A stretch of DNA of 64,000 nt from Onthophagus taurus. Taxonomy: Eukaryota; Arthropoda; Insecta; Coleoptera; Scarabaeidae. Below the pieces are notes generated by a model. That model had not been told where the DNA came from, made no database searches, and worked only from the letters and a program-made list of their open reading frames with translations. Shown here one piece after another: positions 24,166 to 41,300 of this stretch (the stretch's first letter is position 1; each line of letters begins with the position of its first letter). The DNA is taken from assembly GCF_036711975.1 (NCBI RefSeq), contig NC_091972.1, forward strand, positions 34,539,001 to 34,603,000, in the 5' to 3' direction. Position numbers and translations under genes: made by a program.

Positions 24166-27100
24166 CTGCAAAAAGAAATATCAATTCATTAATAACCATT
24201 TAAACTAATCCTAAAGACATGATCGAATTAACGATTGTGAAAGTATTTGTTCAGCTAATAAGCATTTAAATTAACCCTAAAGGCATGATGCATAAAAGAT
24301 ATTGATCGATCGTTGGTATTCATCAGCTTATAGGTCTCTAAATATGAAAATGTTGAAGTGTAATCATTTTCCTACCTAAATAGGTTATAACTAAAAAACC
24401 AAACATGATGGAAAGAAATACTTCAGATTAAAAACATTCTCAATTAATCCAAAAATAATAATCCATAAACGGTTTTACCTCATCCTTGATGATTATTCAC
24501 TTATAAGACATACAACACAAAGGTTTCCAAATTAAACGATTTTGAAATCAAAATAAGATATAAATCCAATGCTGAAATTGCTGAAATGTATTGTTTCAGC
24601 TAATAAGCACTAAAATTAACCTTAAAGGCATGATGCATAAAAGATTTTGATCCATCATTGGTATTCATCAGCTTATAGGTCTCTAAATACGCAAATGTTT
24701 AAATTCAGTCATGTATCTACCTAAATAGGTTATAACTTCAAAACTAAAGATTATAGAAAGAAATGTTTCAGATGAAAAACATTCTAAATTAATCCAGAAA
24801 TAATAATTCATAAACGGTTTTACATCATCCTTGATGATTATTCATTTATAAGAAACAAATCACCACGATTTCCAAATTTAACGATTTTGAAATCAAAATA
24901 CGACATAAACCTAAAATTGAAATTGCTGGAATGTATTGTTTCAGTCAATAAGCATTTAAATTAACCTTAAAGGCATGATGCATAAAAGATTTTGATCCAT
25001 CATTGGTATTCATCAGCTTATAGGTCTCTAAATATGAAAATGTTTAAGTTCAATCATTTTCCTACCTAAATTGGTTATAACTTAAAAACTAAAGATGATA
25101 GAAAAAAATGTTTCAGATGAAAAACATTCTAAATTAATCCAGAAATAATAATTCATAAACAGTTTTACTTCATCCTTGATGATTATTCATTTATAAGAGA
25201 CACATCATGAAGATTTCGAAAATTAACGATTTTGAAATCAAAATAAGATATAAATCTAAAACTGAAACTGCTGGAACGTTTTGCTTCAGCTAGTAAGCAT
25301 TTAAATTAACTTTAAAGGTATGATGTATAAAAGATTTTGATCCATCAGCTTACAGGTCTCTAAATATGAAAATGTTTAAGTTCAATCAAGTTCCTACCTA
25401 AATAGGTTATAACTTAAAAACTAAAGATGATAGAAGAAAATGTTTCAGATGAAAAACATTCTATATTAATCCAAAAATAATAATCCATAAACGGTTTTAC
25501 TTCATCCTTGATGATTATTCATTTATAAGAGACAAATCACCACGATTTCCAAATTTAACGATTTTGAAATCAAAATAAGACATAAACCTAAAATTGAAAT
25601 TGCTAGAATGTATTGTTTCAGTTAATAAGCATTTAAATTAACCCTAAAGGCATGATGCATAAAAGATATTGATCCATCATTGGTATTCATCAGCTTATAG
25701 GTCTCTAAATATGAAAATGTTTAAGTTCAATCATTTTCACTAACTAAATTGGTTATAACTTAAAAACTAAAAATGATAGAAGAAAATGTTTCAGATGAAA
25801 AACATTCTAAATTAATCCAGAAATAATAATTCATAAACGGTTTTACTTCATCCTTGATGATTATTCATTTATAAGAGACACATCATGAAGATTTCCAAAA
25901 TTAACGATTTTGAAATCAAAATAAGATATAAATCTAAAACTGAAACTGCTGGAACGTTTTGCTTCAGCTTAGCATTTTTTGCTTAAGCATTTAAATTAAC
26001 TTTAAAGGTATGATGTATAAAAGATTTTGATCCATCAGCTTATAGGTCTCTAAATATGAAAATGTTTAAGTTCAATCAATTTCCTACCTAAATAGGTTAT
26101 AACTTAAAAACTAAAGATGATAGAAGAAAATGTTTCAGATGAAAAACATTCTATATTAATCCAAAAATAATAATCCATAAACGGTTTTACTTCATCCTTG
26201 ATGATTATTCATTTATAAGAGACACATCACGAAGATTTTCAAAATTAATGATTTTGAAATCAAAATAAAATATAAATCTAAAATTGAAAATGGTGGAATG
26301 TATTGTTTCAGCTAATAAGCATTGAAATTAACTTTAAAGGCATAATGCATAAAAGATATTGATCGACCATTGGTATTCATCAGCTTATAGGTCTCTAAAT
26401 ATGAAAATGTTGAAGTATAATCATTTTCCTACCTAAATAGGTTATAACTAAAAAACCAAAGATGATGGAAAGAAATACTTCAGATTAAAAACATTCTCAA
26501 TTAATCCAAAAATAATAATCCATAAACGGTTTTACCTCATCCTTGATGATTATTCATTTATAAGACATACAACACGAAGGTTTCCAAATTAAACGATTTT
26601 GAAATCAAAATAAGATATAAATCCAAAACTGAAATTGCTGGAATGTATTGTTTCAGCTAATAAGCACTAAAATTAACCTTAAAGGAATGATGCATAAAAG
26701 ATTTTGATCTATCATTGGTATTCATCAGCTTATAGGTCTCTAAATACGCAAATGTTTAAATTCAGTCATGTATCTACCTAAATAGGTTATAACTTAAAAA
26801 CTAAAGATGATAGAAAAAAATGTTTCAGATGAAAAACATTCTAAATTAATCCAGAAATAATAATTCATAAACGGTTTTACTTCATCCTTGATGATTATTA
26901 ATTTATAAGAGACAAATCACCACGATTTCCAAATTTAACGATTTTGAAATCAAAATACGACATAAACCTAAAATTGAAATTGCTGGAATGTATTGTTTCA
27001 GTCAATAAGCATTTAAATTAACCGTAAAGGCATGATGCATAAAAGATATTGATCCATCATTGGTATTCATCAGCTTATAGGTCTCTAAATATGAAAATGT

Positions 27101-28406
27101 TTAAGTTCAATCATTTTCCTACCTAAATAGGTTATAACTTAAAAACTAAAGATGATAGAAGAAAATGTTTCAGATGAAAAACATTCTCAATTAATCCAAA
27201 AATAATAATCCATAAACGGTTTTACTTCATCCTTGATGATTATTCATTTATAAGACATACAACACAAAGGTTTCCAAATTAAACGATTTTGAAACCAAAA
27301 TAAGATATAAATCCAAAACTGAAATTGCTGGAATGTATTGTTTCAGCTAATAAGCACTAAAATTAACCTTAAAGATATGATGCATAAAAGATTTTGATCC
27401 ATCATTGGTATTCATCAGCTTATAGGTCTCTAAATACGCAAATGTTTAAATTCAGTCATGTATCTACCTAAATAGGTTTTAACTTCAAAACTAAAGATTA
27501 TAGAAAGAAATGTTTCAGATGAAAAACATTCTTAATTAATCCAGAAATAATAATTCATAAACGGTTTTACTTCATCCTTGATGATTATTCATTTATAAGA
27601 GACAAATCACCACGATTTCCAAATTTAACGATTTTGAAATCAAAATAAGATATAAATCTAAATCTGAAACTGCTGGAACGTTTTGCTTCAGCTAGTAAGC
27701 ATTTAAATTAACTTTAAAGGTATGATGTATAAAAGATTTTGATCCATCAGCTTATAGGTCTCTAAATATGAAAAGGTTTAAGTTCAATCAAGTTCCTACC
27801 TAAATAGGTTATAACTTAAAAATTAAAGATGATAAAAAAAAATGTTTCAGATGAAAAACTTTCTAAATTAATCCAGAAATAATAATTCATAAACGGTTTT
27901 ACTTCATTCTTGATGATTATTCATTTATAAGAGACAAATCACCACGATTGCCAAATTTAACGATTTTGAAATCAAAATACGACATAAACCTAAAATTGAA
28001 ATTGCTGGAATGTATTGTTTCAGTCAATAAGCATTTAAATTAACCTTAAAGGCATGATGCATAAATGATTTTGATCCATCATTGGTATTCATCAGCTTAT
28101 AGGTCTCTAAATATGAAAATGTTTAAGTTCAATCATTTTCCTACCTAAATTGGTTATAAGTTATAACTAAAAAACTAAAGATGATAGAAAAAAATGTTTC
28201 AGATGAAAAACATTCTAAATGAATCCAGAAATAATAATTCATAAACGGTTTTACTTCATCCTTGATGATTATTCATTTATAAGAGACAAATCACCACGAT
28301 TGCCAAATTTAACGATTTTGAAATCAAAATACGACATAAAACTAAAATTGAAATTGCTGGAATGTATTGTTTCAGTCAATAAGCATTTAAATTAACCATA
28401 AAGGCA
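24166..28406. repeat. Satellite array, about 12 monomers of approx. 345 bp
   Basis: Head-to-tail monomers spaced about 332-351 bp. The block TAAACGGTTTTACTTCATCC recurs, with minor variants, near 24467, 24811, 25157, 25488, 25833, 26178, 26522, 26868, 27211, 27559, 27891 and 28241. Several variant types occur. One lacks 13 bp between CCATC and AGCTTATAGG, and one has the AAATACGCAAATG/CAGTCATGTATC variant. The array is cut at 28406 by the LTR element and continues at 38366. Confidence 0.93.
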
Positions 28407-29194
28407 TGTAACAAACCGCATTTTGGGATTCGAAAGCGATTAAAAAAAAATAATAAAACGCAATACAGGCAGAACTTTGTAATTTAATTACGAAGTTGCG
28501 TCTTGAGAACCGAGGGTCCAGACTAAATACTACGTAGGCGGTTCTGGCAGGAATGTGCCGAGGTGGCAGTTAGAGTAGATGGAGCAGGGAAGAAATGAAG
28601 AAAAAATCGGGGAGTCGGTTACGGGATTGGAACAGAAAAGCATCGGGCGAAACCGGGAAATTAAAGTTTTTGTTGTGTTTTTAAATTCGAGTCGTGCGAT
28701 TTGAACTTATAGCAATTTAGTTATAAAATTCGTTGAATTGGATTCTCTTTCTTCGATGAATATTTTACTTTAACAAACGGGTAAGCGTTATTAAAATCTT
28801 AAACTTCCGATTTCTCATTGAACCTGCTAACCACCTCGGCAAATTTCGTAATGATGTTGTTGAATAGCTTATGTCATGTAATTTTTACTTTTTAAAACCT
28901 TTGTCAGTTGTTTTTTTTTATATATAATATAATACGTTCTTGTTCAAAAATAAAGCAAACTTATTCTTTAGCAGTGAAATTTCGTTTTCTTTCAATCTAT
29001 TTTTATTCTTAATTTCAAATTACTGCCGTTTGCTTTCAAGTGAACGAATGCAGTGTGCCAAACCCTAACTCAGTCATTGCTAGCTATCAAGAAAACGGTA
29101 GTGCGTGGACAGTTGGGTACGCGAGCCGCTCCGTGGACCTAGCTAGGAAACCCACTACGGGAAACGAGAAGTTCTCGAGAGCTAGTTTGTGACA
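28407..29194 (+). repeat. 5' LTR, 788 bp
   Basis: Begins TGTAACAAAC and ends GTTTGTGACA, a 10-bp inverted terminal repeat with one mismatch and the TG...CA boundary. A TATA-like run (TATATATAATATAATACG) lies near 28919-28937. An AATAAA signal follows at about 28950, so U3/R/U5 order is plausible, with transcription starting near 28950. Identical by eye to the 3' LTR. Confidence 0.95.
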
Positions 29195-29442: not shown

Positions 29443-30558
29443 ATGAACGCCGATGATAACGTAGCAGAAATTCCGGGCGAAGCTGAAGGTTCTATTCTAA
29501 CAACACCAATGATGGTTACACCGATTTCTTTAGGAATGTTAGCAGGAACGGTAGAATCTTTTTCAGGTCGAGAAAATGTTAAACTGTATTTTGAAAGGTT
29601 AGAGCAACGTGCGATCTTAGATAATTGGAATGAAACACAAATGCTTCATATTGTTAGGTATCGATTGAGTGGAGAGGCTTATAAATTTTATAAGGCGGAA
29701 ACAAACTTACAGAGTAATCAGGTCACATATGTAGAATTACGGGAAAAATTAATTAAAAAGTTTACCCCGCGAAAATTACCGGGAGAAGCACTAGGGAAAT
29801 TAATGCGCGCGTTCCAAAAACACGATGAATCCGTGTCGTCTTACGTAACCAGTATAAAGTCTATCGCGAATGAGATTATCGAGGAGGACAAAGCGAAAGT
29901 AACAGCAGCAGAATTACCGGGAGTTATTATAAAAATTAATGAATTAGCACTAAGTCAATTTAAAGTGGGAATGAAACGTGAATTAAGCCAAATGGTAGGA
30001 ACGTTACTTATGCGTGAAACGGATTTAACTCTAGATAAAGCGGAAGAGATCGCATCATTTGAAGAATTAAATCAGGCTACAAACCGAAATCGTCCAAATC
30101 GAATTAATATAGGAGCGGTGGATACGACTACTAGATTATGTTACAGATGCGGAAAGTCAGGTCATTTTGCGAAATTTTGTAATGCACAGACAACCGTGTT
30201 TAATTGTTATAATTGCGGGAAACCCGGTCATATTAGTAAACAATGTAGGTTACCTTCAAATAAAATGCAACCGAACTACGACCAAAGGCGTGACCTCCCA
30301 CGCCGTGTTAGTTTTCAAGAGGGTCATTCATCCGATAAGGTAAACAACCGCGACCGAAGAAATTTTTATTACCAACAGCGAGATTATCAAAACGAACCGC
30401 GACGTAATGTAAACGATAACAATTATACGGGCCGACAATCGCCCCCGCAGGTTACTAGATCACCGCAAATTCCCGCAAATAACAGGTACAATGAGACGAA
30501 CTCTTTAAACGCATATCGTCCTGCGGTGAATACCCGAACCGCAGGAGACTCGAATTAA
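29443..30558 (+). CDS. Gag of the LTR retrotransposon
   Basis: 371 residues. Residues 30-210 resemble a Ty3/gypsy capsid region (WNETQMLHIVRYRLSGEAYKFY, EALGKLMRAFQKHDESVSSY). Two CCHC zinc knuckles follow (residues 233-246 and 255-268, both C-x2-C-x4-H-x4-C) that would bind the RNA genome, then a basic, Asn/Arg-rich tail. It packages the element's RNA into particles. The start is the ATG at 29443 after an A-rich leader. The stop lies within the overlap with pol, directly downstream of the slippery heptamer. Confidence 0.93.
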   Translation: MNADDNVAEIPGEAEGSILTTPMMVTPISLGMLAGTVESFSGRENVKLYFERLEQRAILDNWNETQMLHIVRYRLSGEAYKFYKAETNLQSNQVTYVELREKLIKKFTPRKLPGEALGKLMRAFQKHDESVSSYVTSIKSIANEIIEEDKAKVTAAELPGVIIKINELALSQFKVGMKRELSQMVGTLLMRETDLTLDKAEEIASFEELNQATNRNRPNRINIGAVDTTTRLCYRCGKSGHFAKFCNAQTTVFNCYNCGKPGHISKQCRLPSNKMQPNYDQRRDLPRRVSFQEGHSSDKVNNRDRRNFYYQQRDYQNEPRRNVNDNNYTGRQSPPQVTRSPQIPANNRYNETNSLNAYRPAVNTRTAGDSN

Positions 30559-30563
30559 AGGGT
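30504..30563 (+). promoter_or_regulatory. Programmed -1 frameshift signal between gag and pol
   Basis: TTTAAAC at 30504-30510 is in the exact phase needed (T TTA AAC in the gag frame). Eight bases later a perfect 9-bp stem forms (30519-30527 with 30538-30546) around a 10-base loop. Loop bases ACCC (30532-30535) could pair with GGGT (30560-30563) to make a pseudoknot. The pol frame is open from 30495, in -1 relative to gag. A shift here would continue into pol. Confidence 0.85.
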
Positions 30564-33500
30564 TACGATAGGTCAATAAAGTCTGTCGAAAATTATGACC
30601 CAACTGTAAATAAGATTATACCGCATATGAGACTCATTTTTGAAACACCTTTTTCTATTAAATTGTTCAATAAAAACAAACCAATAACGATGTTAGTAGA
30701 CACCGGTTCTCCTGTTACGATAATTAAACATTCTTGTGTAATTTCGGAAGCAATTAAACCTATGTCGGGAGATTTTAGTATTTCGGGAATAACGGGACAC
30801 GGAATTGACATGCTAGGTACGACTGAGTTAAATTTTTCATTGGGGAATGAATCGAATTTAGGAGATTTCTCGTGCTATGTATGTTTGGACAATTTGCCTT
30901 TAACCACAGATGGAGTATTGGGACGCGATTTTATGGAATTTCACAATGTAATTATTGATTTTAGTAAAGGTAGCCTAAATGTAGGAGGTATCGATGTTAG
31001 ATTTTCAAGTATCATGAACGTCAATTTGGGGTCGCAGCGTATTGTGTCTACAGATTCCCTTGAATGTAGAGAATCCACCACATCAGGTTTAGGTGTAGGT
31101 CAGGTAGATAATTTGGAACTCGCGAATGATTATGTATCAGAATTATCAACGGAAATAAATTTAATCGAACCGCAAGTAACGAGGACGGAGTATCTAATAA
31201 AGAAACGTGAAGTCGAAGAAAAGTACGTAACCGAGGAGACGAATCAACGAACGAGGTTTATGCCACTCGAGGTAAATGTTTTGGTAGAAGAGTTTGGGGA
31301 GTTAAGTTCAGATAGCAACGATGACTATGAAACCGGGTATCGCCGAATGATCGATGTAAATGTGGACAGGGATTGTCACGATAGAAGAATAGAAGAAGAA
31401 GAAAAAAAAACAGAGAAATTAAAGACTAAAGAAAGTCAAAGGGAGAGCCGAGAAGGCGAAAGTCAAGAAGACCCCAGCGGAAGTAGTGGATTAGTGACGC
31501 AGAAGTCACGAATTGTTGCAGAAAATAATGAGTTAAGGGAATGCGAAAATGAAGAAGAAATTAAGGATGAAACTGATATGAAAGATACGGAAGAAAACGA
31601 AATAAACAATGATAAAAACTGTCAATGTAATCCTGTTATCACCGTTGAAGAAGATATCGTTGAACCGTTTACAGAGAAGGTGTTAGCGGTTGACGTGCGT
31701 AATAATAATAAAAAGAACGACATTGTAATTGAATCAAGTAAAACGCCCTTTCATCCAAATATATTAATAGGAAGATGTGCTGTTCCAAGAGGGGAAAAAC
31801 CACGAGTATTGGTTGCAAACATAGGAGAAGAATCAATAACGATTCCAAAGCATACAGAGATAGCTAGAGCGTATAGTTGTATAATACCGAATAAGAAGGT
31901 TAATCCAGAAGTAAAAAGCGAGATGGTTGCAATGATAAGAGAAAACGAAGAGACATCAACATTTTTGGAATCGATCTCATTGGTCCACCTATCAGAAACA
32001 GACAAAGAGAAAGTTGAAAAATTGTTACTAGATTATCGAGATATTTTCGACAATGGTGACGAAAGTTTTACGAAAACTCACAAGGTCAAACATCAAATTA
32101 TTACTGAGAATGTACCACCAATTAGTAAACGTCCATATAGAGTACCAGTTCATCAACGAGAGTTCTTGCAGGAAGAAATAGATAAGCTGTTAAAGAAAAA
32201 TATTATTAAACCATCTCATTCACCCTGGTCGGCGCCGGTTGTAATCGTTAACCGGCAGATGTCAGACGGATCGATAAAACCCCGAGTATGTATAGATTAC
32301 CGAGGACTCAACGCGGTAACTAAGAAAGATGTGTACCCGTTGCCGAATCTGCAAGAGACAGTAGATGTGTTAGGGAAGACTAATCTGTTTAGCGTGTTTG
32401 ATGTAGCGTCGGCGTACCATCAAATAGAAGTGGAGAAGAATGACCGAGAAAAAACAGCTTTCTCCACGCCGTTCGGGCACTATGAGAGCAACCGAATGAT
32501 GTTTGGGCTAGTAAATGCCCCCGCGACGTTTCAGCGCTTCATGAATTTTACATTTTCGGGATTATTAGGTACTCATTGCCTCGTCTATTTAGATGATATA
32601 ATAATTTTCAATGGAACGGGTGTCGACGATCATTTGAACAAACTACAAACTATTTTTGATAGAATCCGAGATGCAGGACTAAAACTTAAGATGGAGAAAA
32701 GCCAGATCGCGGTCCCAAAGGTGTCTTATCTTGGTCACATAATATCTGCCCAAGGCGTTCAACCGGATCCGGGAAAAATCAATTCGATACAGAATTTCCC
32801 CGTTCCAAAAAACGTTAGGAATTGTAGAGAATTTTTGGGGCTGGTGGGATGGTATAGGAAATTTATACCGGACTTTACCCGATTAGCGGCCCCAATTACG
32901 AAGTTAACGCGCAAAGATGTCGCGTTTAAATTCGAAAAAGAGCAATTGGAAGCGGTGGAAAGCTTAAAGGCCGCGATAACATCAGAATCGGTATTAATTT
33001 TCCCAGATTTCAATGAGCCTTTCATCTTGGCTACAGACGCGAGTAACACAGGATTAGGTGCTATACTTAGTCAGGTGAGAGAGGGAAATGAACGCCCTGT
33101 GGCTTTCGCTAGTAGAGGACTAAAGAAGGCTGAGCTAAACTATTCGACTACCGAAAAAGAGTGTCTTGCTGTCATATTTGGGATAAAGCAATTTCGGTGC
33201 TACTTATATGGACGCCGTTTCACTATCATAACAGACCACAGACCATTGAAATGGTTGATGAATATCAAAGACCCGAGCTCGAGACTAGCACGATGGGCTT
33301 TAATGCTAATGGAGTATGACTTCGAGATTATCCACAGACCGGGCCGAAAGCATGGAAACGTGGATGCTCTCAGCCGAAACAGTATAGTTTCCCTAATCCG
33401 AAAGGATGAGAAAGATAAGTTATGCATTAATGAAGTAGAGGGAAATTTGTTTGATGCTCCCCAAGGTTGGGTATTAGCTCATTGCGTTTCGGCTGATTTT

Positions 33501-35573
33501 GCGATGGGAGCTGGTATTGCAAAGGAATTTAAAAAGCGATTTGGCTCCGTTGAAAAATTAAGATCCGAGGAGAAAGGAGTTGGTGACATAGTACCGCAAA
33601 TAGCGGAGAAACGAAAAATATACCATTTAATTACAAAGGACGAATACTACCATAAACCAACGTACCACATGTTGAGACAGTGTCTAGAAACGTTACGGGA
33701 GGAAATGAATAAATCTGGGGAGAGATATTTGGCAATACCCAGAATAGGATGTGGTCTCGATAAACTAAAGTGGAGCCTAGTTAAAGAAGAATTAAGAGAA
33801 TGTTTTGAGGGAACGAATACCATGATAATGGTATATAAATTACCTTTTGTTAAAAACAAAACACTATGTAAAATACAGGAAAATATAGCAACGCCAGTTT
33901 GGGATAAAAATGTTATTTTGAAAGAACAAGATAAGGACGAGTTTTGCATTGAAATACGGGATTCTCTTTCATCAAACAAAGATCTTAGGGATAGTTATTT
34001 CATAGATAATGATAAGCTCTTATTTAAAACTGATGAGTTAGGAAAAGAAGTACTAGTGTTGCCGAAATCATTTGTGCAGAAGGCTTTGCATGATTACCAC
34101 GATTTACCATTTGCAGGTCATGGCGGTCAAGCGAAAACATTAGCTTTACTTAAGGATAGGGTATTTTGGCCGTCTATGACACGTGATGTTAAAAAGTATT
34201 GTTCGAATTGTGAGTCATGCAATAGACGTAAAACTTCCCCCCATATGTCTAGAGCACCCTTGCAAAAATTTACAACTGTTCGAAAGCCATTCGAAAGAAG
34301 TTCAATGGACATAGTGGGTCCGTTACCAACAACATACAAAGGAAACAAGTATATACTTACGTTCCAGGACTATTTCACCAAATATTTAGAGGCAGTAGCC
34401 TTACCTGATCAGAAGGCTGATACTGTGGCTCGAGCTTTTGTAACGCAAATAGTAAGTCGCCACGGTACTCCTCTGCAGTTGCTCACCGATCAGGGTACAA
34501 ATTTTGTGTCGTCACTCATGAAGGAAATTTGTAAGCTATTAAATATCGACAAAATACAAACCACACCGTATCATCCCGAGTGCAATGGTCTTATCGAGAG
34601 AAGTCATCGGGTGATCAAGGACGTACTATCTCACTATGTTAAAAAGGACCAAAGAACCTGGGATGAATGGCTACCCTATGTTCTTCTGGCGTACAGATCA
34701 ACGGTGCATAGTAGTACGGGCTATACCCCCCACTTTTTGTTATACGGCAGGGAAATGGAATTACCAGTGGATGTTTTTCTCCGACCCTCCAGGTGTAAGT
34801 ACGACTGTGATGAGAACTATGTGACGGAATTGGCAGCGCGAATGAACCACGTGTATGAGACGGTTTTTGAAAGTTTGCAGTTTGCCGCTCGAAGACAGGC
34901 TGAGTATTATAATAAAAGAAGTAAGCACAGAGATTTTTACGTAGGAGAGTTGGTACTCTTAAAAGACACATCTATAAAACCAGGTCTAAATAGAAAATTA
35001 GCCCAACCTTGGATAGGACCGTACATGATTACAAAAATTAAAGGACCAGAGAACTACGAAATTACATCAGTAAACGGAAAGCTAAAATCTATTGTACATA
35101 GTAATAGATTGAAATCATTTCGAACTAATAAAGACTCAACCCCGAAAGAGTGTAAAAGCCTAGATTCGAATGTACACCTCGAAGAAATAAACGAAGACCG
35201 GTATGTTGATCCACATATGCCGATAATCAGTTTACATACACCGGATCTGACTTTTCGAAAAAATACAGGAGTAACAGATTTACTAAATGAGACCCCCTGC
35301 CCAAAAATTAATATATGTCCGAGACGATTAATTCTAGAAGAGAGTGATGATACTAGTACAGCAGAAAATCTGGAAGGGAAAAATGAATGTATGAGTAAGG
35401 AGTTGTTGGAGTCAATAGCTGAACCTTCTGAAAACCCTTCAGAAATAGAAAGAGAACGTGAGGACGATAGCATTATTATTAAGGCACCAGAATTAATAGA
35501 TGAACCCCTTGAAGAACCGTTGGCAATACGACGGGAGAGGAGAGCCATAAAACTTCCAGCTAGGTATAGGTAA
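30510..35573 (+). CDS. Pol polyprotein: PR, RT, RNase H, macrodomain, integrase
   Basis: Entered by -1 frameshift near 30510; the first ATG in frame is at 30627, and residue numbers count from it (1,648 aa). Aspartic protease with DTGS at 25-28. Acidic, Glu/Lys-rich linker about 180-360. Reverse transcriptase with the catalytic YLDD at 654-657. RNase H from about 800 (first Asp 804 in ATDAS). A TARG1/OARD1-type macrodomain at about 937-1073. Integrase with an HHCC zinc finger from His1155 and a DDE core D1228, D1288, E1324 (D-35-E exact). A GPY/F-like segment near 1450-1480 and a charged tail. It processes particles, copies RNA to DNA and integrates it. No stop or frameshift seen, so it could be active. 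The macrodomain is not part of standard Ty3/gypsy Pol. Confidence 0.95.
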   Translation, partial: RISSCGEYPNRRRLELKGYDRSIKSVENYDPTVNKIIPHMRLIFETPFSIKLFNKNKPITMLVDTGSPVTIIKHSCVISEAIKPMSGDFSISGITGHGIDMLGTTELNFSLGNESNLGDFSCYVCLDNLPLTTDGVLGRDFMEFHNVIIDFSKGSLNVGGIDVRFSSIMNVNLGSQRIVSTDSLECRESTTSGLGVGQVDNLELANDYVSELSTEINLIEPQVTRTEYLIKKREVEEKYVTEETNQRTRFMPLEVNVLVEEFGELSSDSNDDYETGYRRMIDVNVDRDCHDRRIEEEEKKTEKLKTKESQRESREGESQEDPSGSSGLVTQKSRIVAENNELRECENEEEIKDETDMKDTEENEINNDKNCQCNPVITVEEDIVEPFTEKVLAVDVRNNNKKNDIVIESSKTPFHPNILIGRCAVPRGEKPRVLVANIGEESITIPKHTEIARAYSCIIPNKKVNPEVKSEMVAMIRENEETSTFLESISLVHLSETDKEKVEKLLLDYRDIFDNGDESFTKTHKVKHQIITENVPPISKRPYRVPVHQREFLQEEIDKLLKKNIIKPSHSPWSAPVVIVNRQMSDGSIKPRVCIDYRGLNAVTKKDVYPLPNLQETVDVLGKTNLFSVFDVASAYHQIEVEKNDREKTAFSTPFGHYESNRMMFGLVNAPATFQRFMNFTFSGLLGTHCLVYLDDIIIFNGTGVDDHLNKLQTIFDRIRDAGLKLKMEKSQIAVPKVSYLGHIISAQGVQPDPGKINSIQNFPVPKNVRNCREFLGLVGWYRKFIPDFTRLAAPITKLTRKDVAFKFEKEQLEAVESLKAAITSESVLIFPDFNEPFILATDASNTGLGAILSQVREGNERPVAFASRGLKKAELNYSTTEKECLAVIFGIKQFRCYLYGRRFTIITDHRPLKWLMNIKDPSSRLARWALMLMEYDFEIIHRPGRKHGNVDALSRNSIVSLIRKDEKDKLCINEVEGNLFDAPQGWVLAHCVSADFAMGAGIAKEFKKRFGSVEKLRSEEKGVGDIVPQIAEKRKIYHLITKDEYYHKPTYHMLRQCLETLREEMNKSGERYLAIPRIGCGLDKLKWSLVKEELRECFEGTNTMIMVYKLPFVKNKTLCKIQENIATPVWDKNVILKEQDKDEFCIEIRDSLSSNKDLRDSYFIDNDKLLFKTDELGKEVLVLPKSFVQKALHDYHDLPFAGHGGQAKTLALLKDRVFWPSMTRDVKKYCSNCESCNRRKTSPHMSRAPLQKFTTVRKPFERSSMDIVGPLPTTYKGNKYILTFQDYFTKYLEAVALPDQKADTVARAFVTQIVSRHGTPLQLLTDQGTNFVSSLMKEICKLLNIDKIQTTPYHPECNGLIERSHRVIKDVLSHYVKKDQRTWDEWLPYVLLAYRSTVHSSTGYTPHFLLYGREMELPVDVFLRPSRCKYDCDENYVTELAARMNHVYETVFESLQFAARRQAEYYNKRSKHRDFYVGELVLLKDTSIKPGLNRKLAQPWIGPYMITKIKGPENYEITSVNGKLKSIVHSNRLKSFRTNKDSTPKECKSLDSNVHLEEINEDRYVDPHMPIISLHTPDLTFRKNTGVTDLLNETPCPKINICPRRLILEESDDTSTAENLEGKNECMSKELLESIAEPSENPSEIEREREDDSIIIKAPELIDEPLEEPLAIRRERRAIKLPARYR
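33435..33845 (+). other. Macrodomain (TARG1/OARD1-like) embedded in Pol
   Basis: Pol residues 937-1073. It starts EGNLFDAP and LAHCVSADFAMGAGIAKEFK, the ADP-ribose-binding loop with MGAGIA, and ends with the IPRIGCGLDKLKW and MVYKLP strands of the fold. The residues equivalent to TARG1 Lys84 and Asp125 are Lys1004 (in LITKDEYYHKPTY) and Asp1045 (in GCGLD), 41 apart as in TARG1. TARG1 removes ADP-ribose from acidic residues and deacetylates O-acetyl-ADP-ribose (family knowledge); catalytic competence here is inference. It lies between RNase H and the integrase zinc finger, the slot where some lentiviruses carry a dUTPase. Confidence 0.93.
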
Positions 35574-35815: not shown

Positions 35816-36905
35816 CGCTCTTAACTACTTTATTGGCGATTGGAGCCTACATAAATATAGGATTAACAATTTATTATCACATACGATTGTAGCACCCGTA
35901 GTGTTAATATTAGTCTCATATCGCTAAAAAAAAAAAAACGTTGGAAATTGTTCACAAATAAGGTCCAATTATGTAGAAAACATGTTACAAGTGCAAATAG
36001 TCCAAAGAGCCCGGATTCACCGACAAATCGTATATAGAAACACATAAAAATCGCTTATTGTTGGCCCCGTTATCACCAACCACCGTTAGTTTGCTCGCTA
36101 AGAATGAAACGAGTTATGTCGGCCGTGCAATCGGAGAAGTCCTGTACATATTGAAATGTGTACCAAAGAGAGTGCAAGTAAGAAAAACGTATACTTGCTA
36201 CCATGAACTTCCTGTCTCTGATACGGATAACCGGTCCTATTTTGAGTCGCCAATGACACATGTACTCCTGGACTATGCAGACCAGGTTGACCGCAACCTC
36301 ATTAATTCACCAATGTATCAGATTGAAAAGCCCTGGGTAGCCTTAACTCCACTGCAGGTATCCCAGACACCTCCTGATGGACTTCTACCTTATGAAGATT
36401 CAGAAATCAAAATTTAGTACCATTATGAATTTGGGAGTGGCCGAAATTTATAACAACGAAGACGTCAGACAAGCACAAGAAATAGTACAAGTCGGCTTGG
36501 AACGATCAGCTATAAACAATGTCATTATTAGAAAAATCCAGGGAAAGAAGACAGAAAAATAAGAACTGGATTCAACTATTTCATGCGGAAGAGTTGCGTA
36601 AATTTGCTAAGAGCACGTTATCGCACGAGTGATTGTTTTATTGTGTTTCGTAAAGGGACTCGCTAGCGTGATATTGAATGGCTACGCAATATATAAAACC
36701 TTGGGATGCGGTATCGTCATCTTGGCCAGTTGCGGAAAAATTTTACGATGTGGCTTCTTAATCAGAGAAGGGGTGAGGATCTTGCTTCGCCAGAAACTCC
36801 GACTAACATAGTTCCTGAGGCAACCAATTCCACAAGCCCTGAAGTGATGGTTTCAAATATATATTCTGAGGTACCGACCTCTCCAAGTTGGATGCGGAAA
36901 TAAAT
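35816..36905 (+). pseudogene. Broken env-like gene remnant
   Basis: A segment at 36001-36417, open without a usual ATG, has a CYHELPV motif and a downstream Pro-rich stretch like the middle of the envelope-like protein of insect errantiviruses. Further pieces in other frames follow (36377-36562, 36629-36811 with hydrophobic stretches, 36706-36903). At least three stops or frame changes separate them, and there is no signal peptide in frame. It cannot make a full envelope protein. Because the LTRs are identical, the env was probably already broken in the source copy. Confidence 0.6.
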
Positions 36906-37577: not shown

Positions 37578-38365
37578 TGTAACAAACCGCATTTTGGGAT
37601 TCGAAAGCGATTAAAAAAAAATAATAAAACGCAATACAGGCAGAACTTTGTAATTTAATTACGAAGTTGCGTCTTGAGAACCGAGGGTCCAGACTAAATA
37701 CTACGTAGGCGGTTCTGGCAGGAATGTGCCGAGGTGGCAGTTAGAGTAGATGGAGCAGGGAAGAAATGAAGAAAAAATCGGGGAGTCGGTTACGGGATTG
37801 GAACAGAAAAGCATCGGGCGAAACCGGGAAATTAAAGTTTTTGTTGTGTTTTTAAATTCGAGTCGTGCGATTTGAACTTATAGCAATTTAGTTATAAAAT
37901 TCGTTGAATTGGATTCTCTTTCTTCGATGAATATTTTACTTTAACAAACGGGTAAGCGTTATTAAAATCTTAAACTTCCGATTTCTCATTGAACCTGCTA
38001 ACCACCTCGGCAAATTTCGTAATGATGTTGTTGAATAGCTTATGTCATGTAATTTTTACTTTTTAAAACCTTTGTCAGTTGTTTTTTTTTATATATAATA
38101 TAATACGTTCTTGTTCAAAAATAAAGCAAACTTATTCTTTAGCAGTGAAATTTCGTTTTCTTTCAATCTATTTTTATTCTTAATTTCAAATTACTGCCGT
38201 TTGCTTTCAAGTGAACGAATGCAGTGTGCCAAACCCTAACTCAGTCATTGCTAGCTATCAAGAAAACGGTAGTGCGTGGACAGTTGGGTACGCGAGCCGC
38301 TCCGTGGACCTAGCTAGGAAACCCACTACGGGAAACGAGAAGTTCTCGAGAGCTAGTTTGTGACA
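37578..38365 (+). repeat. 3' LTR, 788 bp
   Basis: Same length and, line by line, the same sequence as the 5' LTR, including the homopolymer runs. It is followed by the GGCA target duplication. Confidence 0.95.
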
Positions 38366-41300
38366 GGCATGATGCATAAAAGATATTGATCGATCATTGG
38401 TATTCATCAGCTTATAGGTCTCTAAATATGAAAATGTTTAAGTTCAATCATTTTCCTACCTAAATTGGTTATAACTTAAAAACTAAAGATGATAGAAAAA
38501 AATGTTTCAGATGAAAAACATTCTAAATTAATCCAGAAATAATAATTCATAAACGGTTTTACTTCATCCTTGATGATTATTCATTTATAAGAGACACATC
38601 ACGAAGATTTTCAAAATTAATGATTTTGAAATCAAAATAAAACATAAATCTAAAACTGAAAATGGTGGAATGTATTGTTTCAGCTAGTAAGCATTTAAAT
38701 TAACTTTAAAGGTATGATGTATAAAAGATTTTGATCCATCAGCTTATAGGTCTCTAAATATGAAAATGTTTAAGTTCAATCATGTTCCTGCCTAAATAGG
38801 TTATAAGTTGTAACTTAAAAACTAAAGATGATTGAAAAAAATGTTTCAGATGAAAAACATTCTAAATTAATCCAGAAATAATAATTCATAAACGGTTTTA
38901 CTTCATCCTTGATGATTATTCATTTATAAGAGACAAATCATCAAGATTTCCAAATTTAACGATTTTGAAATCAAAATAAGATATAAATCTAAATCTGAAA
39001 CTGCTGGAACGTTTTGCTTCAGCTAGTAAGCATTTAAATTAACTTTAAAGGTATGATGTATAAAAGATTTTGATCCATCAGCTTATAGGTCTCTAAATAT
39101 GAAAATGTTTAAGTTCAATCAAGTTCCTACCTAAATAGGTTATAACTTAAAAACTAAAGATGATAGAAGAAAATGTTTCAGATGAAAAACGTTCTATATT
39201 AATCCAAGAATAATAATCCATAAACGGTTTTACTTCATCCTTGATGATTATTCATTTATAAGAGACACATCATGAAGATTTCTAAAATTAACGATTTTGA
39301 AATCAAAATAAGATATAAATCTAAAACTGAAAATGGTGGAATGTATTGTTTCAGCTAATAAGCATTGAAATTAACCTTAAAGGCACGATGCATAAAAGAT
39401 TTTGATCCATCATTGGTATTCATCAGCTTATAGGTCTCTAAATATGAAAATGTTTAAGTTTAATCATTTTCCTACCTAAATAGGTTATAACTAAAAAACC
39501 AAAAATAATAGAAAGAAATACTTCAGATTAAAAACATTCTCAATTAATCCAAAAATAATAATCCATAAACGGTTTTACCTCATCCTTGATGATTATTCAT
39601 TTATAAGACATACAACACAAAGGTTTCCAAATTAAACGATTTTGAAATCAAAATAAGATATAAATCCAAAACTGAAATTGCTGGAATGTATTGTTTCAGC
39701 TAATAAGCACTAACATTAACCTTAAAGGAATGATGCATAAAAGATTTTGATCCATCATTGGTATTCATCAGCTTATAGGTCTCTAAATACGCAAATGTTT
39801 AAATTCAGTCATGTATCTACCTAAATAGGTTATAACTTCAAAACTAAAGATTATAGAAAGAAATGTTTCAGATGAAAAACATTCTAAATCAATCCAGAAA
39901 TAATAATTCATAAACGGTTTTACTTCATCCTTGATGATTATTCATCTATAAGAGACAAATCACCACGATTTCCAAATTTAACGATTTTGAAATCAAAATA
40001 CGACATAAGCCTAAAATTGAAATTGCTGGAATGTATTGTTTCAGTCAACAAGCATTTAAATTAACCCTAAAGGCATGATGCATAAAAGATATTGATCCAT
40101 CATTGGTATTCATCAGCTTATAGGTCTCTAAATATGAAAATGTTTAAGTTCAATCATTTTCCTACCTAAATTGGTTATAACTTAAAAACTAAAGATGATA
40201 GAAAAAAATGTTTCAGATGAAAAACATTCTAAATTAATCCAGAAATAATATTTCATAAACGGTTTTACTTCATCCTTGATGATTATTCATTTATAAGAGA
40301 CACATCATGAAGATTTCCAAAATTAATGATTTTGAAATCAAAATAAGATATAAATCTAAAACTGAAACTGATGGAACGTTTTGCTTCAGCTAGTAAGCAT
40401 TTAAATTAACTTTAAAGGTATGATGTATAAAAGATTTTGATCCATCAGCTTATAGGTCTCTAAATATGAAAATGTTTAAGTTCAATCAAGTTCCTACCTA
40501 AATAGGTTATAACTTAAAAACTAAAGATGATAGAAGAAAATGTTTCAGATGAAAAACGTTCTATATTAATCCAAAAATAATAATCCATAAACGGTTTTAC
40601 TTCATCCTTGATGATTATTCATTTATAAGAGACAAATCACCACGATTTCCAAATTTAACGATTTTGAAATCAAAATACGACATAAACCTAAAATTGAAAT
40701 TGCTGGAATGTATTGTTTCAGTTAATAAGCATTGAAATTAACCTTAAAGGTATGATGCATAAAAGATTTTGATCCATCATTGGTATTCATCAGCTTATAG
40801 ATCTCTAAATATAAAAATGTTTTAAGTTCAATTATTTTCCTACCTAAATATGTATAACTCAAAAACCAAAAATGATGGAAAGAAATGTTTCGGATTAAAA
40901 ACATTCTAAATTAATTCAAAAATAATAATCCATAAACGGTTTTATTTCATCCTTGATGATTATACATTTATAAAAGACAAATCACGAAGATTTCCAAAAT
41001 TAATGATTTTGATATCAAAATGTGATGTTAATTTAAATGTGAAACTTCTGGAATGTATTGTTTCAGCTGATAAGCATTCAAATTAACCTTAAAGGCATGG
41101 TCCATAAACGATATTCGTCCATCATTAGTATTTATTAGCTTATAAATTTCCTAATGCAAATTTAGTTAATTTCGTTACTAAATAGGTTGTAACCCAAAAA
41201 CTAAAAATGATGGAAAGAAATGTTTTAGATGAAAAATATTTTAAATTAATTCAAAAATAATAATCCATAAACGATGTTGCTTCATTTTGTTTATTATTAA

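What the first reader, a model, noticed from the sequence alone, without database searches (positions are those of the whole stretch)
33435..33845. A TARG1/OARD1-type macrodomain captured inside the Pol polyprotein of a Ty3/gypsy retrotransposon
Between RNase H and the integrase zinc finger, Pol has about 137 residues that read as a full macrodomain with MGAGIA and GCGLD motifs. Both catalytic positions of TARG1 (Lys84, Asp125) have counterparts, Lys1004 and Asp1045, at identical 41-residue spacing. The domain is in frame and uninterrupted in an apparently young, intact element, so it is probably under selection. Standard Ty3/gypsy Pol has no such domain. Removing ADP-ribose could counter host PARP responses to cDNA or integration intermediates, or act on the element's own proteins; this is a hypothesis. 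Its position mirrors the dUTPase of some lentiviruses.
Basis: partly seen in the sequence, partly recalled or inferred. Interest (0 to 1): 0.92.

Follow-up and report, generated by a model that had tools for sequence, protein, structure and literature searches.

The report
ADP-ribose-removing domain inside retrotransposon polyprotein
A jumping gene in an insect genome carries, between its DNA-copying and DNA-inserting enzymes, what looks like an intact cellular enzyme that strips ADP-ribose tags, and worn-down versions of the same domain appear to be a hidden part of many related jumping genes.

The parts
28403..28406 (.). left target-site duplication GGCA
   Evidence: flank ...AAAGGCA before TGTAAC; GGCA follows the 3' LTR
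28407..29194 (+). 5' LTR, 788 bp, TG...CA
   Evidence: identical run with 37578-38365
29443..30558 (+). Gag ORF, 371 aa, with CCHC zinc knuckle (about 30202-30249)
   Evidence: PF00098 E 2.3e-10
30627..35573 (+). Pol ORF, 1648 aa from ATG
   Evidence: open frame 1692 aa
30672..30938 (+). aspartyl protease
   Evidence: PF00077 E 3e-5
32277..32744 (+). reverse transcriptase core
   Evidence: PF00078 E 1.1e-33
33006..33317 (+). RNase H
   Evidence: PF17917 E 4.3e-42
33435..33845 (+). TARG1/OARD1-type macrodomain, full active-site signature (MGAGIA loop, Lys68, Asp109 of the domain)
34062..34238 (+). integrase zinc finger (H2C2)
   Evidence: PF17921 E 7.8e-22
34284..34577 (+). integrase core
   Evidence: PF00665 E 7.5e-14
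36058..36417 (+). env remnant, Monjiviricetes-type fusion glycoprotein, profile positions 350-463 of 653
   Evidence: PF24664 E 1e-25; 19 loci listed with the same fragment (profile 346-465 or 346-466)
37578..38365 (+). 3' LTR, identical to the 5' LTR
38366..38369 (.). right target-site duplication GGCA

Best explanation
The domain is a working TARG1-type ADP-ribosyl hydrolase built into Pol and kept by selection in a clade of gypsy-type elements with env or env remnants. SHOWN by computation: fold, active-site residues, in-frame conservation in the copies, purifying pattern, presence in sister families, three insertion sites, tandem copies, and decayed versions, one of them with the same predicted fold, across a large related lineage. 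INFERRED: the domain travels with RT/integrase into the pre-integration complex (as part of the polyprotein or as a cleaved product) and there removes ADP-ribose, from Glu/Asp of integrase or other element proteins or from nucleic-acid ends, that host PARP adds when it meets cDNA ends and integration nicks. Lineages that escape this pressure let the active site decay and keep the fold as a structural part next to integrase; others gain a second or relocated copy.
Against: No activity, expression or processing data. Many relatives lost the loop and Asp, so the enzyme is dispensable there and a structural role could be the general one. 11 of 22 copies carry T67S, next to the Lys, where Thr is invariant in the 64-sequence set. 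The macro tree does not by itself prove independent captures: holding window-clade and big-clade domains together is not rejected (p-AU 0.267). In the upstream-of-RT family the Pfam Macro match is below the curated cut-off (20.6 of 22 bits), though the macro profile built here gives 4.3e-46.
Confidence: 0.57

Rival explanations
1. Structural or reader role: the macrodomain is a binding or scaffold module beside integrase (tether to ADP-ribosylated chromatin at breaks, or an N-terminal extension of integrase). Catalysis is incidental and often lost.
For: The large clade keeps the domain flush on the integrase zinc finger in 113 of 113 although loop and Asp are often gone; P0182 is still predicted to fold like TARG1.
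Against: The window family, L030, L038/L047, L048 and L050 keep the complete signature, and the window family and L030 keep it over saturated synonymous divergence; a mere spacer would not need Lys and Asp.
Confidence: 0.28
2. It acts on metabolites (O-acetyl-ADP-ribose or free ADP-ribose derivatives) or on the element's own ADP-ribosylated Gag/Pol rather than opposing a host defence.
For: TARG1 is named O-acetyl-ADP-ribose deacetylase 1 in PDB; no target is known.
Against: Placement inside Pol, beside RT or integrase and not in Gag, in the three arrangements seen. This is weak evidence.
Confidence: 0.1
3. Neutral passenger or assembly artefact: a host OARD1 exon recently picked up by one copy.
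For: The host has an OARD1-like locus without RT or integrase, read as two exons 44 bp apart (L054), so a source exists.
Against: 22 copies on seven contigs, sister families at 68, 50-52 and 45% identity, the same domain in other Pols.
Confidence: 0.02

Closest known systems
TARG1/OARD1/C6orf130 (terminal ADP-ribose glycohydrolase 1)
   Same: Fold, 43-46% identity over 134-136 residues, Lys84/Asp125 counterparts, MGAGIA loop
   Different: Here an internal domain of retrotransposon Pol; activity untested
[quoted passage not shown]
   Same: An ADP-ribose-processing domain taken into Gypsy Pol
   Different: Named as a different domain family (YbiA/NADAR), other host kingdom, other position, bacterial-like source
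Macro-domain ORFs in epsilon-like fish endogenous retroviruses (PMC4977317, one passage citing Basta et al. 2009; the original was not held)
   Same: Macro domain carried by a reverse-transcribing element
   Different: Described there as an additional open reading frame in retroviruses, not an internal Pol domain in Ty3/gypsy
dUTPase between RNase H and integrase of non-primate lentiviruses (recalled, no call)
   Same: Extra enzyme domain at the same Pol junction
   Different: Different enzyme; no ancestry link tested
TARG1-like folds in viral proteins in BFVD (Kadipiro virus VP8; flavi-like, virga-like and negev-like viruses)
   Same: Same fold type inside viral proteins, several named after insects
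   Different: Unrelated viruses; no Pol/integrase context

Membership tests
TARG1/OARD1-type macrodomain | macrodomain fold closest to TARG1 | tested here: met
   TARG1 ranks first by Foldseek and by Z (23.9, rmsd 1.1, 134 aligned)
TARG1/OARD1-type macrodomain | catalytic Lys84 and Asp125 (their role is recalled; spacing and chain numbering checked) | tested here: met
   domain residues 68 and 109; 22 of 22 copies
TARG1/OARD1-type macrodomain | hydrolysis of Glu/Asp- or nucleic-acid-linked ADP-ribose | not testable with these tools
   needs an enzyme assay
Ty3/gypsy (Metaviridae) LTR retrotransposon | domain order PR-RT-RNase H-integrase | tested here: met
Ty3/gypsy (Metaviridae) LTR retrotransposon | LTR pair TG...CA with short target-site duplication | tested here: met
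   788-bp identical LTRs, GGCA on both sides
Ty3/gypsy (Metaviridae) LTR retrotransposon | tRNA primer-binding site | not tested
   sequence after the 5' LTR was printed but not matched to a tRNA
env-bearing gypsy element (errantivirus-like) | intact env gene | tested here: not met
   window copy has only a 119-aa ORF matching part of PF24664 (open frame 138 aa); the sister family with the domain upstream of RT has open frames of 659 aa at 7 loci
macrodomain-derived RNase H-IN linker (proposed here) | profile match to cellular macrodomains in the linker | tested here: met
   116 of 124 at E<1e-3; best of 300 shuffles 0.079; 0 of 13 contaminant loci (12 with a readable linker). Not met in 6 of 8 own-genome families chosen by RT (L078-L083)
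macrodomain-derived RNase H-IN linker (proposed here) | macrodomain fold in a decayed member | tested here: met

The most novel reading that the evidence does not exclude
The RNase H-integrase linker of a large lineage of insect gypsy-type (in part env-bearing) retroelements is a fossil TARG1 ADP-ribosyl hydrolase. Active, decayed, duplicated and relocated forms record a long conflict between these elements and host ADP-ribosylation, with the window family holding a form still armed.
Probability: 0.55. Interest if true: 0.88.

Novelty: new variant of a known kind. Interest (0 to 1): 0.81.

Why it matters
It gives a function-bearing identity to a stretch of Pol treated as linker, shows that an enzyme type known from cellular de-ADP-ribosylation and found in viral proteins is also a recurrent part of gypsy-type Pol, and suggests that ADP-ribosylation restrains retrotransposition in insects, which can be tested starting from a small single domain.

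Tried and rejected
Passenger/artefact: rejected by copies and relatives. Single unique capture: rejected. Proof of several independent captures from the macro tree alone: not reached. The tree groups retro-macrodomains in several places (two changes forced by starred branches) but one-clade tests give p-AU 0.267 (window clade + big clade), 0.523 (window clade + L052), 0.356 (big clade + L052), 0.0502 (window clade + upstream-of-RT group) and 0.124 (the same + L052). Insertion site is the better argument. Linkers of L078-L083 gave no significant macro match in hmmsearch or hhalign, so not every family shows it. Profile from decayed linkers: it matched 12 of 13 contaminant loci weakly, 11 of them best over at most the first 55 of 191 positions (RNase H tail) and L096 over positions 1-97 at 2.4e-7, so that profile is not specific there; the macro profile matched none. 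Protease of the upstream-of-RT family: Pfam found no family in the 449 residues before the domain; the protease motif there was read by eye. Searches for relatives in viral contigs found none. Host species not identified; 134 odorant-receptor matches say insect. In the VIA list for the P0182 model integrase fills most rows, and Foldseek's top 50 showed no macrodomain. Literature: 10 searches found no description of a macrodomain in Ty3/gypsy Pol; only open-licence PMC papers are covered, and preprints and most subscription papers are not. Passages were also looked up in PMC12859917, PMC8003356, PMC7139919, PMC8195603 and PMC5982333 without relevant content; the DOI turned out to be another paper than I meant.

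Full report
What is there. The window lies at G000:C7:34539001-34603000 of a 290.8-Mb genome, an insect by its 134 odorant-receptor matches. A satellite array of about 345-bp units is interrupted by an LTR element: identical 788-bp LTRs at 28407-29194 and 37578-38365, TG...CA ends, GGCA target-site duplication, Gag 29443-30558 and Pol 30627-35573. Pfam, run on pieces, finds protease, RT, RNase H, Macro, integrase zinc finger, integrase core and a C-terminal integrase domain in that order.

Copies in the same genome. A protein search gave 77 matches (counts of repeats there are lower bounds). 22 copies at 99-100% identity form the window family; all 22 keep Lys and Asp, 1 of 22 has a stop in the domain, and 11 of 22 carry T67S. 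Counted, 16 of 22 sit in a 1692-residue open frame with no stop in the match. Sister families carry the domain at 68, 50-52, 47, 45, 44 and 39% identity, with RT and/or integrase pieces beside it. Between the window family and the 68% sister, synonymous sites are saturated (pS 0.78) while pN is 0.181 in the domain and 0.105 in integrase: clear constraint, about 1.7-fold looser than integrase. dS itself cannot be estimated at this divergence.

A second arrangement. In L038-L047 (10 loci; also the damaged L048, L066 and L067) the domain lies upstream of RT, and in the copy read across (L039 and L075, overlapping stretches) the RNase H-integrase linker is only about 80 residues. A protease motif precedes it by eye; Pfam found no family there, and the Pfam Macro match is just below cut-off, although the profile built here gives 4.3e-46. 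Seven loci of this family are followed by open env frames of 659 aa that match a Monjiviricetes-type fusion glycoprotein, of which the window family keeps only a fragment (19 loci listed).

Decayed macrodomains. Linkers of other gypsy families in this genome match a profile made from 120 database hits of the domain (P0011-P0130, lengths 136-233): L058 1.4e-17, L063 1.3e-16, L056 7.3e-14, L061 9.5e-14, L077 2.7e-7, L076 8.3e-6; best of 300 shuffles 0.079. L056, L058, L061 and L063 had been fetched through weak similarity to the window domain; L076 and L077 through RT alone. Of the 8 RT-chosen families (L076-L083), 2 match and 6 do not.

Outside this genome. A search with RNase H + linker + integrase start of L058 scored 7969 candidates and found 3323 proteins; the best 120 plus 4 from an earlier search were examined. 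In 124 of 124 the best macro match lies in the RNase H-integrase linker: 81 at E<1e-10, 24 more <1e-5, 11 more <1e-3, 6 more <0.1, 2 above. The list was picked with a query that itself holds a decayed domain, so it is not an unbiased sample. Only 11 of the 120 carry an organism name, all insects: Photinus pyralis 1, Melanaphis sacchari 1, Parnassius mnemosyne 1, Uroleucon formosanum 8; that the whole clade is of insects is inferred. Aligned Lys is present in 113, Asp in 65, Lys+Asp+Gly-Ile-type loop in 45 of 124; the strict signature (both loop glycines, Lys, Asp) in 1 of 124, P0003. Controls: 13 gypsy-bearing loci from contaminating contigs, 12 with readable linkers, gave 0 matches to the macro profile; a profile of decayed linkers did match 12 of these 13 weakly, mostly over the RNase H tail.

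Sites and tandem copies. By profile ends, the gap between domain and integrase is -6 to 0 residues in 113 of 113 Pols of the large clade (7 tandem Pols and the 4 of the P0003 group left out), 67-72 in 5 window-clade loci and 82-84 in P0003/7/9/10, close to the 75 and 85 residues of two macro-less linkers, L080 and L082. Seven of 124 Pols (P0161, P0162, P0163, P0170, P0171, P0191, P0202) carry two domain matches in a row at E<0.05; in P0162 and P0163 the first matches far more strongly than the second.

Trees. The Pol tree without the linker puts window families, L052 and the upstream-of-RT family together (local support 100), apart from the P0003 group and the large clade (FastTree; long branches meet near the root, so the root is unsure). 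The macro tree splits retro-domains into a 35-row clade that includes the upstream-of-RT family and L050, the window clade, the P0003 group and L052, but one-clade tests do not reject merging (the closest is p 0.0502). Number of captures: two or more is likely from the sites; one origin with movement is not excluded.

Mechanism. TARG1 hydrolyses ADP-ribose on Glu/Asp; of TARG1 and MacroD, flies have only TARG1 while honey bee lost it; TARG1-like domains occur in viruses but few keep all essential residues (PMC4245714, passages). The host has PARP domains (5 matches) and an OARD1-like locus (L054). The most likely reading is an enzyme kept near RT/integrase that strips ADP-ribose added by host PARP to element proteins, cDNA ends or integration sites. 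The main rival is a structural or reader role, which fits the decayed forms.

Novelty. Ectocarpus Gypsy Pol with a NADAR domain (PMC12477816, passages) and macro-domain ORFs in fish retroviruses (PMC4977317, one passage) show that retroelements can take up ADP-ribose-processing domains. Ten library searches (listed under Tried and rejected) found no report of macrodomains in Ty3/gypsy Pol, nor of the fossil linker; closed papers and preprints were not covered. Databases already label some of these Pols with PF01661 or, automatically, as O-acetyl-ADP-ribose deacetylase (P0196). On rechecking, the confidence was lowered slightly (0.58 to 0.57; interest 0.82 to 0.81) because the protease in the sister family and the insect origin of most Pols rest on inference.

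Noticed in passing
window 36058-36417: Env remnant of a Monjiviricetes-type fusion glycoprotein; 19 loci are listed with the same 138-residue open fragment, while the upstream-of-RT family keeps open 659-aa frames at 7 loci.
   Followed up: partly
window 30495-30627: The Pol frame is open about 44 codons upstream of its ATG and overlaps the end of Gag in another frame, which suggests a frameshift (inference).
   Followed up: no
window domain residue 67 (33633-33635): T67S next to the catalytic Lys is in 11 of 22 copies, at a position invariant in the 64-sequence alignment.
   Followed up: no
window 26030-28393 and 38402-39717: Satellite array with about 345-bp units on both sides of the element; the element inserted into it.
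   Followed up: no
P0002, P0004: Non-retroelement proteins that join a TARG1-type macrodomain to XPG-type nuclease domains (P0002) or to PARP zinc-finger and DNA ligase domains (P0004) by precomputed Pfam, pointing to DNA repair.
   Followed up: no
P0005, P0008: Proteins of 1678 and 1666 residues that look by eye like RNA-virus polymerase polyproteins, with a TARG1-type macrodomain in the C-terminal part.
   Followed up: no
L050: Family placed inside the large clade that still has a near-complete signature (MGRGIA, Lys, Asp) although its frames are broken.
   Followed up: partly
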